From the NCBI GenBank assembly GCA_030620115.1, contig JAUXFG010000127.1, forward strand, positions 1-11,306: a DNA stretch of 11,306 bases. Direction: 5' to 3'. Below the pieces are notes generated by a model that searched no databases, had not been told where the DNA came from, and saw only the letters and a list, made by a program, of their open reading frames with translations. Positions 1,313 to 11,302 of this stretch are shown one piece after another. The DNA comes from Candidatus Fermentibacterota bacterium. Its GTDB lineage: Bacteria > JAFGKV01. How positions within the stretch are numbered: position 1 is the stretch's first letter; each line of letters begins with the position of its first letter. The position numbers and the translations under genes were made by a program.

Positions 1313-1480
1313 ATCTGCACGCTGAACGCTCTCTTGTTCCGACAGCCTGACCCAGATTGACAGATTATAGATTCTTCCTTCCCCCCCCAGATTCTTCGGT
1401 CGCTCCGCTCCCTCAGAATGACACATCATTCCCAATCTCCTCCCAATCTCCTCTCCCAATCTGTGTAATCTGTGGTTCCC
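1313..1480. repeat. Mosaic of short dispersed repeats between two minus-strand genes
   Basis: The 197-nt gap between the beta-helix gene and the small ORF is made of short repeat modules that recur elsewhere in the window: acgctgaacgct (1318-1329), cagattcttcggtcgctccg and its continuation to 1426 (also near 3648, 3877 and, inverted and diverged, 3944), and tandem ctcccaatct-like units (1431-1461) running into aatctgtgtaatctgtggtt. The same module order (ctgaacg run, pyrimidine-rich spacer, attcttcgg module) occurs at 3599-3686. No coding sequence or terminator is evident. Confidence 0.6.
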
Positions 1481-3598: not shown

Positions 3599-4030
3599 TC
3601 AACGCTGAACGCTGAACCCTGAACGCCCTCTTCTTCCAACCCCCACCCAGATTCTTCGGTCACTCCGCTCCCTCAGAATGACACATGCACTCACGCTCGA
3701 TTTCCTAATTGTCAAATCCCCTCCCTCCGCCAGATTTCATATTATAGATTGTAGATTTCAGATTCTTCCCCCCCATCCCCCAAATCCCTTCTTTTCCTTC
3801 GATGTTGGATGTTGGATGTTTGGCGTTCAATCCAAATCCCGCAATCCCGCAATCCCGCAATTCCCCTCCTCCCACCCAGATTCTTCGGTCGCTCCGCTCC
3901 CTCAGAATGACACACACTTCCACTCCCTTCTGCCTCAAACCCTTGTCATTCTGAGCGACTCCAAGAAGCGAAGAATCTCTCCTACATCCTTCCTCCGTCA
4001 TCTGAACGCTGAACGCTGAACGCTTCCTTC
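3599..4030. repeat. Dense mosaic of dispersed short repeats
   Basis: This holds 7-bp tandem runs ctgaacg/ctgaacc (3605-3625) and ctgaacg x3 (4002-4022), the cagattcttcgg...cagaatgacaca module at 3648-3686 and 3877-3914, tandem atcccgca units (about 3836-3861), gatgttggat direct repeats (about 3801-3820), and attatagattgtagatttcagattc. Reading frames through it only give low-complexity peptides. This style of repeat is frequent in candidate-phylum and FCB metagenome assemblies (from memory). It looks like untranslated repeat accumulation rather than a gene. Confidence 0.65.
3877..3980. repeat. Head-to-head inverted pair of the 'attcttcgg...cagaatgaca' repeat
   Basis: The module at 3877-3914 runs on the plus strand; a diverged copy at 3944-3980 (tgtcattctgagcgactcca, then agaagcgaagaatct) runs on the minus strand. 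Their inner ends, cagaatgaca (3903-3912) and tgtcattctg (3944-3953), are perfect complements and their outer ends (agattctt / aagaatct) also pair. The pair can therefore fold as a long imperfect stem across a 31-nt loop. The middle of the diverged copy has changed while both ends are kept. Confidence 0.55.
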
Positions 4031-9141: not shown

Positions 9142-9604
9142 GATTTCCTCCCATCCAAATCTGTCTCATCCCTGCAATATGACAACACCTTCAAGACGGA
9201 TCTATGTTCCGAAAAGTTCCATGCGTGTTGATCACGCTCTTCGCAAGTGCCTACGTTCTCGGGAGGGCGATCATCTCATGGCAACTGGTGTCCTGACCTG
9301 AAACTCCGTCTCGAACTTCGTCCCGAACTTCATCAGGAGCTGCGTCGAGCCAAGTTTCTTCCATGTGTGGGTCAGTAGGAGTCGGGCGGATATTGCCTTT
9401 CGGCATTCGTCATGTCGAGTCCTCCCCGCATCCCAGGATGCAATGCCAGATCACATAATCCGTTTTTGATTAAGTTCCTGCGCATATACTTAAATAGTTT
9501 GCGTATCAAACGAAAGGATGAATGCGAATTGCGTGATTGAGAATCGAGGAATTGAGCGACTGCGGGAAACGAAGAATCCCTCACCATTCCATCATTCCAG
9601 CAAC
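9142..9604. other. Intergenic, no gene seen; AT-rich dyad and small duplications
   Basis: Upstream of the serine hydrolase. Nothing convincing is coded. There is a 12-bp imperfect duplication, tcgaacttcgtc / ccgaacttcatc (9311-9334), and an AT-rich nested dyad (ttaagt 9470-9475 with acttaa 9488-9493, flanked by tttgat 9465-9470 and atcaaa 9505-9510). The dyad stands out from the GC-rich surroundings and could hold a promoter or operator. Bases 9541-9600 resemble worn repeat modules (gaagaatccctc, ccattccatcattccag). Confidence 0.35.
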
Positions 9605-9776
9605 GTAGGTCGGGTTAGCCTAGCGTAACCCGACATTCTTCCGGCTCAGGCCCGCGGCGATACGTGGATGGGGGCGCGTACTCGGAGGATCTCAGAGCGG
9701 GGCGGTCGGGTTGCCGGAGGACGTGGGAAACGAGAGATATGGAGTTGTCGGGTTACGCTCTGCTAACCCGACCTAC
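9605..9776. mobile_element. 172-bp REP/MITE-like element, copy 1
   Basis: It is bounded by perfect 15-bp terminal inverted repeats, gtaggtcgggttagc (9605-9619) and gctaacccgacctac (9762-9776). Each end also folds on itself: gtcgggtta-gcctagcg-taacccgac (9609-9634) and gtcgggtta-cgctctgc-taacccgac (9747-9772). Two such palindromes in opposite orientation make a BIME-like unit; GTAGGTCGGGTTAGCG-type palindromes are known REP-like sequences linked elsewhere to REP-associated tyrosine transposases. The middle has no ORF of note. A copy with 6 differences in 172 bp lies in the same orientation at 11131-11302. Both copies are preceded by agcaac; no target-site duplication is obvious. Confidence 0.8.
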
Positions 9777-10125
9777 ACCTGCTGTTCCGTGCCTTGACCT
9801 TGATCCTCCTTGCTCATCGATGTCACTTCTCTTATCATCATTCCCCCTTTGTTTCATTCGTAAACGCACGGACCGGAGGCTGCTCTCAAAGACTCCCGCC
9901 CCATAATGTGAATAGATCTGGAGTACCTATGGCGGCCACACGACGTATAGTGAGTGCTGAGTGGTCTCTTCTCTGTGGAGCGACGCAGAAAGCCAATGGG
10001 GCGTTATGGGGTGTTGGAGAAACGGAGAATTGGAATGAGGGGGGAGTTGGAGCATGAGGATCAGGTATCGTGGTCATGCCTGAATTGATGCCATCGAGTA
10101 CGACAACACTCCACGAGGCTGACGC
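9777..10125. other. Leader region of the two-gene cassette; no clear gene
   Basis: Nothing is recognised as a complete gene. There is a purine-rich stretch with ggag repeats (10015-10059), and at its end a 17-codon frame (ATG 10076, encoding MPELMPSSTTTLHEADA) whose TGA overlaps the GTG of the next gene as GTGA (10126-10129). The promoter of the cassette should lie here, but I cannot assign -35 and -10 boxes. Confidence 0.35.
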
Positions 10126-10941
10126 GTGAACATCTACCTCGAGCTCACCGAACGGTTCAACCAAGGGAAACTGCGAGCTATCATCAGCTCTGGTCAGGCA
10201 GTGGTACTTCACCGGTTGGCCATCATGAGCAAGGACGGCGACTGGATTCTGAAAGAAGATAATGAAACCATGAAGCACGTTCTGGGGATTCTGTCTGAGT
10301 TCAACGCGCGATACCGCTTTGGCGCTCCACTCGACAAGCGATGGATGACCGGGGGATGGAGCTCACACTTCGAATTCCGCCATGAGCAGCTTCGGGTTCG
10401 AACTGATTTTGTCACCCGGCCACCTCGAATCCAGCGATCCGAGCTGGAAATGATCTGGGACGAACAGGCAGGTCACGGTACGCCATTTGTGGGCGCGAGG
10501 CATTTGGCTGAGATCAAGAAGACTAATCGCGAGAAAGACTATGCGATTATCGGTGAACTGGCCAGGATCATGGTAGATCCTGCGGACCAGCTGCTCTATT
10601 CTAGAAGCGCAAGAGATCTCATTGGCCTTGCTGAAGAGTATCCCGACCTCGTTCAGGATCTGAAGTCCAAGCGGCGTGTCTTGCAGTTCATCCGTAAGGG
10701 AAGAGAACGGCTGGAAGAAACCATCGACGCTGAGAGGCGCATGCTCATGCGAGCCAATGAGGATAGGCTTGCTGCCTATGCTGAGGCTGCACAGGCTTGG
10801 TCATCGGTCTGGTTGGATGTCAGGAATGAGATCACTGGTCGATCTCTGCTTGAGGCTCATGAGATCATCGTAAGAAAGGCAGAGTTGTTCTTGCCGTTTC
10901 AGCTTTCAAGAGGAGTGTCGAGTGATCAGGTTCCAAGATGA
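10126..10941 (+). CDS. Nucleotidyltransferase-fold protein, AbiEii/MNT-like, function unknown
   Basis: A 271-residue protein; GTG 10126 with GAGG 7 nt upstream and GTGA overlap with a 17-codon frame. Residues 19-42 (IISSGQAVVLHRLAIMSKDG then DWIL) match the nucleotidyltransferase start: helix after SG(Q)A, then D37-G-D39 in the place of the DxD metal-binding pair. The third acidic position is D94 in LRVRTDFV. KKTNREKDYAIIGEL (131-145) matches the later K...RxKD..D/I..L segment of AbiEii-type proteins. The conserved-looking stretch ARYRFGAPLDKRWMTGGWSS (61-80) lies between. Residues about 180-255 are a long charged helix region, possibly coiled coil. Motifs are weaker than in canonical toxins, so it could be a catalytic nucleotidyltransferase, a toxin, or an inactive relative. 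The downstream gene overlaps it by 20 nt; both are framed by two copies of the 172-bp element. Confidence 0.65.
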   Translation: MNIYLELTERFNQGKLRAIISSGQAVVLHRLAIMSKDGDWILKEDNETMKHVLGILSEFNARYRFGAPLDKRWMTGGWSSHFEFRHEQLRVRTDFVTRPPRIQRSELEMIWDEQAGHGTPFVGARHLAEIKKTNREKDYAIIGELARIMVDPADQLLYSRSARDLIGLAEEYPDLVQDLKSKRRVLQFIRKGRERLEETIDAERRMLMRANEDRLAAYAEAAQAWSSVWLDVRNEITGRSLLEAHEIIVRKAELFLPFQLSRGVSSDQVPR

Positions 10942-11134
10942 GTTCCTGAGCGAAGAAGATCTGGATCTACGGAATCTCTCAGATGAAGAACTCATGGCAT
11001 ATTGGGAGTTGTGGCTCCAGCAAGCGCAAGTAACGAACGATTTGGATGAACACACCTATTCGCACGGGGTCTTCACCGCGGAACCAACACCAAAGAAGAA
11101 TATCGAGGCGCGAGATCGACCACAAGCAACGTAG
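10922..11134 (+). CDS. Small acidic protein (70 residues) paired with the nucleotidyltransferase-like gene
   Basis: GTG 10922 has AGGAG (10911-10915) 6 nt upstream, a strong site inside the end of the previous gene; the two frames overlap by 20 nt, indicating one operon and coupled translation. The first 30 residues are strongly acidic (ten Asp/Glu, two Arg: FQDEFLSEEDLDLRNLSDEE), followed by an amphipathic AYWELWLQQAQ helix and a basic, proline-containing tail. No known family is recognised. The stop TAG (11132-11134) is made by bases 2-4 of the 172-bp element, so the C-terminus may be altered by insertion. It could be the antitoxin or partner of the preceding protein; this rests on size, charge and coupling only. 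Confidence 0.65.
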   Translation: MIRFQDEFLSEEDLDLRNLSDEELMAYWELWLQQAQVTNDLDEHTYSHGVFTAEPTPKKNIEARDRPQAT

Positions 11135-11302
11135 GTCGGGTTAGCCTAGCGTAACCCGACATTCTTCCGGCTCGGGCACGCGGCGATACGTGGATGGGGG
11201 CGCGTACTCGGAGGATCTCAGAGCGGGGCGGTCGGGTTGCCGGAGGATGTAGGAAACGAATGATATGGAGTTGTCGGGTTACGCTCTGCTAACCCGACCT
11301 AC
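11131..11302. mobile_element. 172-bp REP/MITE-like element, copy 2
   Basis: Same length, orientation, 15-bp termini (11131-11145 / 11288-11302) and end hairpins as the copy at 9605-9776. The six differences are all internal. Its first bases supply the stop codon of the 70-residue gene. The two direct copies are 1526 bp apart start to start, so homologous recombination could delete or duplicate the two-gene cassette. Confidence 0.8.

What the first reader, a model, noticed from the sequence alone, without database searches (positions are those of the whole stretch)
9605..11302. Two-gene nucleotidyltransferase cassette framed by direct copies of a REP/MITE-like element
A degenerate AbiEii/MNT-like protein and a tightly overlapping small acidic protein sit alone between two direct 172-bp repeats. 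Gene order, overlap, size ratio and charge resemble toxin-antitoxin or abortive-infection modules, but the order (nucleotidyltransferase first, small acidic partner second) and the central FGAPLDKRW...GGWSSHFEF block do not match a system I can name. Mobility by recombination between the repeats is plausible.
Basis: partly seen in the sequence, partly recalled or inferred. Interest (0 to 1): 0.7.

Follow-up and report, generated by a model that had tools for sequence, protein, structure and literature searches.

The report
Mobile nucleotidyltransferase toxin-antitoxin-like gene pair
Two overlapping genes, an intact nucleotide-transferring enzyme and a tiny acidic protein, form a compact unit that recurs at unrelated places in dozens of mostly uncultured bacteria; it has the marks of a toxin and its antidote, but no family in the libraries searched has its name.

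Summary
The two overlapping genes (10126-10941 and 10922-11134) and the flanking 172-bp direct repeats (97% identical) are real. The first protein is not degenerate. It has a high-confidence nucleotidyltransferase (NTase) fold (pLDDT 96), and D37, D39, D94 and S35 are invariant in 60 relatives. Nearest solved folds are MenT1, JHP933 and ANT(2'')-Ia/LnuA. No Pfam, NCBIfam or PADLOC family covers either protein.

A genome scan found 72 relatives in more than a dozen phyla. All 69 with readable sequence past the NTase carry the small gene directly downstream, most often with a 4-nt ATGA overlap. Eight of nine large NTase deletions are in frame and keep the small gene. Four orphan small genes were found, and no orphan NTase of this type. 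In the 16 closest pairs the flanking genes are unrelated.

Best explanation: a mobile toxin-antitoxin-like module, NTase as toxin and small protein as antitoxin, probably controlled as in MenAT1. Toxicity is untested.

The repeats are GTAG-type REP doublets around the 3' end of a RAYT transposase gene, present elsewhere in the genome. Four other relatives are also bracketed by direct duplications, each of a different local sequence, so the repeat type is probably incidental.

The parts
10126..10941 (+). NTase gene (putative toxin), 271 aa, GTG start; motif S35-K36-D37-G38-D39 and third carboxylate D94; KKTNREKDY at 131-139
10922..11134 (+). small acidic partner gene (putative antitoxin), 70 aa, GTG start, overlaps the NTase gene by 20 nt; conserved core DEFLSEEDLDL...W..WL.QAQ.TN..D...YSHGVF
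   Evidence: orphans
9605..9776 (+). 172-bp REP doublet, left copy: GTAG REP, 3' end of a RAYT gene, inverted GTAG REP
11131..11302 (+). 172-bp REP doublet, right copy, 97% identical; holds the stop codon of the small ORF
9599..9604 (+). AGCAAC, 6 bp upstream of the left repeat, also present upstream of the right repeat (11125-11130); suggests the duplicated unit is longer than the REP element
9777..10125 (+). leader between left repeat and NTase start; no sigma-70-like promoter found by consensus scan

Best explanation
The pair is a compact, horizontally moving toxin-antitoxin-like module. The first gene makes an active pol-beta-type NTase that is the likely toxin; by analogy with MenT and AbiEii toxins it would add nucleotides to tRNA or another cellular target and stop growth. 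The second gene, translated by termination-reinitiation across the overlap, makes a 45-residue acidic core (linear motif, one helix, HGVF motif) that binds and silences the NTase. Silencing may be by covering the active site, or as in MenAT1 by inducing autophosphorylation of S35, which sits two residues before the first catalytic Asp like MenT1 T39 and MenT3 S78. Shown here by computation: fold, conserved active site, obligate pairing, purifying selection on both genes, asymmetric loss, scattered phylogeny, unrelated flanks. Inferred: toxicity, its target, direct binding, the S35 switch, and how the unit is inserted.
For: Pairing: 69 of 72 relatives have the small gene immediately downstream; the other three stop at a contig end or a run of N. 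Fold: pLDDT 96.3, with nearest structures JHP933 (Foldseek E 1e-4) and MenT1 (Z 9.5), ANT(2'')-Ia (9.2), LnuA (8.8) and TglT/MenT3 (7.9). Active site: D37, D39, D94, S35, K131, R135 and D138 invariant in 60. Asymmetry: 8 of 9 large NTase deletions are in frame and keep an intact small gene; four orphan small genes with no NTase remnant nearby and no orphan NTase of this type in 32 genomes. Selection: dN/dS 0.06-0.20 where dS is measurable, for both genes. Mobility: phylum labels need 23 changes against a minimum of 10; 16 of 16 closest pairs share no flanking homology; DNA similarity in such pairs stops near the two ends of the gene pair. MenA1-induced autophosphorylation of MenT1 at T39 is described in PMC11375011.
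Against: No growth or biochemical data exist. The small protein is about as conserved as the NTase (mean core identity 54% against 50%), which is unusual for an antitoxin. It has no detectable DNA-binding domain and no detectable kinship to MenA1. A model of a natural read-through of NTase and small protein (L069) did not dock the small part (pLDDT 36-77 there, pTM 0.76); only four paired rows were available, so this is inconclusive. No copy was found among plasmids or phages, where toxin-antitoxin pairs are common. VIA-align Z of 8-9.5 is only a middling match.
Confidence: 0.6

Rival explanations
1. The NTase modifies a small molecule (antibiotic-modifying enzyme of the ANT/Lnu kind) and the small protein is an obligatory subunit or chaperone.
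For: ANT(2'')-Ia and LnuA are as close in fold as MenT1 (Z 9.2 and 8.8 against 9.5); resistance genes are mobile and patchy.
Against: Orphan small genes and in-frame NTase deletions that spare the small gene make little sense for a mere subunit. Neighbouring genes show no resistance or biosynthesis theme. The hosts are mostly uncultured environmental bacteria.
Confidence: 0.15
2. Reverse roles, as in MNT-HEPN (type VII): the small protein is toxic and the NTase is the antitoxin that nucleotidylates it, for example on the invariant His of HGVF or the nearly invariant Tyr.
For: NTase antitoxins exist (MntA/HepT, PMC7641770, abstract seen). The small protein has near-invariant Y and H residues.
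Against: Small genes survive without an intact NTase (8 in-frame deletion derivatives, 4 orphans), whereas no NTase of this type is found alone. The small protein is too short for a HEPN domain and has no conserved R-x4-6-H motif.
Confidence: 0.12
3. A non-toxic regulatory or RNA-processing enzyme with a small cofactor, kept for a cellular benefit.
For: Strong purifying selection on both proteins; slow divergence of the small core.
Against: Patchy scattered distribution, unrelated flanking genes and frequent decay of the NTase do not look like a core function.
Confidence: 0.13

Closest known systems
MenAT1 (rv0078B-rv0078A; MenA1 small antitoxin, MenT1 NTase toxin)
   Same: Two-gene pair with small protein partner; NTase fold (Z 9.5); Ser/Thr two residues before the first catalytic Asp
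   Different: Gene order reversed (NTase first here); 271 aa with a longer helical C-terminal part; no sequence kinship of the small proteins detected; no AbiEii Pfam match
AbiE (AbiEi/AbiEii, type IV)
   Same: NTase-fold second component; bicistronic
   Different: AbiEi is a much larger two-domain antitoxin that represses transcription (abstract of PMC7319586); here the partner has a 45-residue core and the order is reversed
JHP933 of Helicobacter pylori (4o8s, 4ok0)
   Same: Best Foldseek match (E 1e-4)
   Different: Only about 10% sequence identity
MNT-HEPN (type VII)
   Same: NTase plus small partner, mobile two-gene module (PMC2701414)
   Different: Partner is not a HEPN domain; NTase is 271 aa rather than minimal; loss pattern points to the NTase as the toxin
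Small-first NTase pairs found here (L044, L045, L046, L047, L048, L050, L061)
   Same: NTase homologous (hhalign probability 99.7, E 3.5e-26); overlapping small gene
   Different: Small gene comes first; its kinship to the window's small protein is not significant (E 0.19)
GTAG REP / RAYT elements (PMC3733652)
   Same: GTAG-tagged palindromes, 49 exact copies, RAYT genes present
   Different: The 172-bp form is an internally deleted REP-RAYT-REP unit

Membership tests
NTase (pol-beta) superfamily | NTase fold with G..., DxD and a third carboxylate | tested here: met
   Model pLDDT 96.3; GQA, D37/D39 and D94 invariant or nearly so; MenT1, JHP933 and ANT matches
AbiEii/DUF1814 (Pfam) | Match to a curated Pfam NTase model | tested here: not met
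   No NTase Pfam hit for any of 60 members at E <= 0.1
MenAT | Phosphoacceptor Ser/Thr two residues before the first catalytic Asp | tested here: met
   S35-K36-D37 invariant in 60; MenT1 T39/D41 and MenT3 S78 from PMC11375011. Position only; phosphorylation not tested
MenAT | Antitoxin kin to a known MenA | tested here: inconclusive
   Profile of 65 small proteins finds no MenA chain in the PDB; sequence search only
MenAT | Antitoxin gene precedes the toxin gene | tested here: not met
   NTase first in all 69 readable loci; MenAT1 order from PMC10435456
AbiE (type IV) | AbiEi-type winged-helix antitoxin next to the NTase | tested here: not met
   Partner core of about 45 aa, no Pfam domain; no recurrent third gene
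MNT-HEPN (type VII) | HEPN partner with R-x4-6-H | tested here: not met
   No consistent HEPN match (one of 65 members at E 0.046); no conserved Arg before the invariant His
Toxin-antitoxin module | Conserved two-gene operon | tested here: met
   69 of 69 readable loci
Toxin-antitoxin module | One protein toxic alone and neutralised by the other | not testable with these tools
   Only indirect: asymmetric loss
GTAG REP / RAYT element | GTAG-tagged palindrome in many copies with a RAYT in the genome | tested here: met
   49 exact copies against 0 for the reversed pattern; four Y1_Tnp genes; REP-RAYT-REP at G000:C200:12673-13299

The most novel reading that the evidence does not exclude
An unnamed class of toxin-antitoxin module in which a near-invariant acidic micro-antitoxin (about 45 residues) switches off an NTase by driving autophosphorylation of S35, carried by a cassette of about 1.1 kb that enters new sites by homologous recombination of a circular or tandem intermediate, leaving direct duplications of 70-570 bp of whatever sequence lay at the target.
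Probability: 0.2. Interest if true: 0.7.

Novelty: new variant of a known kind. Interest (0 to 1): 0.5.

Why it matters
The pair recurs in more than a dozen phyla, mostly known from uncultured genomes, yet no curated family searched names it. If the toxin reading holds, it extends the MenT/AbiEii group with a reversed gene order and a minimal, highly conserved antitoxin. It would also test whether antitoxin-induced autophosphorylation of NTase toxins is general. The duplications of local sequence around several copies raise a testable question of how a cassette with no recombinase of its own moves.

Tried and rejected
Plasmid and phage collections: no match to the NTase. Viral contigs: none. 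PDB sequence searches with the NTase profile: only coiled-coil chance hits; with the small-first NTase profile, MenT1 appears at E 0.28 among kinase chance hits. The small-protein profile hit an engineered cytochrome c555 trimer (E 1.5e-4, no stretch passing on its own), judged a repeat artefact. The SLATT_4 hit of the NTase (E 0.007) covers a helical stretch in one of 60 members and was rejected. Adding separate small proteins to the fusion alignment misplaced them on the NTase. Integron attC sites: no attC-like core sites seen by eye in the flanking repeats of the window, L098 or L115. Defence-island context: neighbours are diverse, no Pfam family in more than 3 of 100.

Full report
Observation. 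The window holds an NTase ORF at 10126-10941 and a small acidic ORF at 10922-11134 overlapping by 20 nt, between direct 172-bp repeats at 9605-9776 and 11131-11302, 97% identical. The small ORF ends on a TAG inside the second repeat. The contig ends 4 bp after that repeat, so nothing is known to the right.

The repeats. Each 172-bp copy is two GTAG-tagged palindromes in inverted orientation. The genome has 49 exact copies of the palindrome against 0 for the reversed pattern, and four Y1_Tnp genes. One of these, at G000:C200:12721-13261, is a RAYT-like gene directly between two such palindromes. Positions 50-172 of the element match the 3' end of this gene plus the palindrome behind it at 81%, and in two frames the element reads RRYVDGGAYSEDL and LPEDVGNE, like the RAYT C-terminus. 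So the 172-bp repeat is an internally deleted REP-RAYT-REP unit. Other 96%-identical copies lie at both ends of contig C101. GTAG REPs and their link to RAYTs are described in PMC3733652.

The proteins. Neither has a curated family: Pfam, PADLOC, NCBIfam; PHROGs only a weak hit of unknown function for the NTase. The NTase model, from 60 relatives, has pLDDT 96.3 and pTM 0.92. Foldseek ranks JHP933 first (E 1e-4); VIA-align gives MenT1 Z 9.5, ANT(2'')-Ia 9.2, LnuA 8.8, TglT/MenT3 7.9. These Z values are middling and show the fold, not the function. D37, D39, D94, S35, K131, R135 and D138 are invariant in 60, so 'degenerate' is wrong.

Pairing. One GTDB scan found 72 relatives, mainly in Planctomycetota, Acidobacteriota, Lentisphaerota, Fibrobacterota, Verrucomicrobiota and Kiritimatiellota, with single members in several other phyla. 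In 69 the small gene follows at once, most often with a 4-nt ATGA overlap; the other three (L100, L103, L111) end or run into N. Across 70 small proteins E23, W31, A35, Q36, D42, H48, G49 and V50 are invariant, while the tail after HGVF varies from 2 to 62 residues. dN/dS is 0.06-0.20 for both genes in close pairs where dS is measurable.

Asymmetric loss. Nine relatives have large NTase deletions. In eight (L098, L107, L109, L126, L127, L129, L132, L133) the remnant is in frame and, except in L133, still overlaps the small gene; L130 is out of frame. If frames were random, 8 or more of 9 has a binomial probability of about 0.001 (hand calculation). For L127 and L129 almost no C-terminal codons remain, so their frame rests on the ORF ending at the overlapping stop. 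L106 and L128 have frameshifts that could be assembly errors. The scan was anchored in the N-terminus, so loss of that part would be missed. In 32 genomes, four small genes stand without an NTase or remnant (G401, G404, G410, and a more divergent one in G414); no NTase of this type stands alone. That is the pattern expected if the NTase is toxic and the small protein protects.

Mobility. Phylum labels need 23 changes on the NTase tree against a minimum of 10; the tool warns that bins and ranks are imperfect. In the 16 closest pairs (70-86% identical NTases) no flanking gene is shared within the 3 kb (or available) flanks, and DNA similarity stops near the ends of the gene pair. Neighbours show no common theme. 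Tight direct repeats of at least 70 bp and 87% identity flank 5 of 69 loci (window, L063, L069, L091, L098) against 1 of 402 control placements. The duplicated sequence differs each time: the start of a BrnT-like gene (L063, named from the sequence by eye), a methylase-like gene start (L069, by eye), the 3' end of a phosphosugar isomerase gene (L098), a gmhA-like fragment (L091, by eye), and the REP element in the window. In the window the duplication includes 6 bp outside the REP element. A single-crossover insertion of a circle or tandem carrying local sequence would leave this pattern; that is inference.

Wider family. A second group of NTases with the small gene first (L044, L045, L046, L047, L048, L050, L061) is clearly homologous (E 3.5e-26) but its small proteins are not demonstrably related to the window's (E 0.19). 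S35 is conserved in both groups.

Mechanism. In MenAT1 the antitoxin MenA1 both sequesters MenT1 and induces autophosphorylation of T39, two residues before the catalytic D41; MenT3 S78 is equivalent (PMC11375011). S35 of the window NTase has the same spacing. I take this as the likeliest form of control, marked as inference. A read-through fusion model did not place the small protein.

Verdict. The pair is best filed as a new variant of NTase toxin-antitoxin modules that is not a member of AbiE, MenAT or MNT-HEPN by the features tested.

Noticed in passing
window 1382-1432, 3642-3692, 3871-3921: A second dispersed repeat, 51 nt (CCCACCCAGATTCTTCGGTCGCTCCGCTCCCTCAGAATGACA...), three direct copies, unrelated to the REP element.
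   Followed up: no
G000:C101 (L138), both ends: A 3.6-kb contig starts and ends in the same 172-bp REP element (96% identical; the far copy is cut by the contig end) and could adjoin the window's right end; it carries three ORFs.
   Followed up: partly
L096 5994-6033 and 10040-10774: A 40-bp fragment 14 bp behind the cassette matches a sequence 4 kb downstream (95% to the L101 counterpart; ychF-like by eye), hinting at another local duplication.
   Followed up: partly
L063 6108-8000: Downstream of the cassette lie BrnT/BrnA-like genes and a TIR-like protein, judged by eye from the translations.
   Followed up: no
L206 2007-2225 and 2522-2989: An orphan small gene lies near a PIN-like (VapC-like, by eye) gene on the opposite strand.
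   Followed up: no
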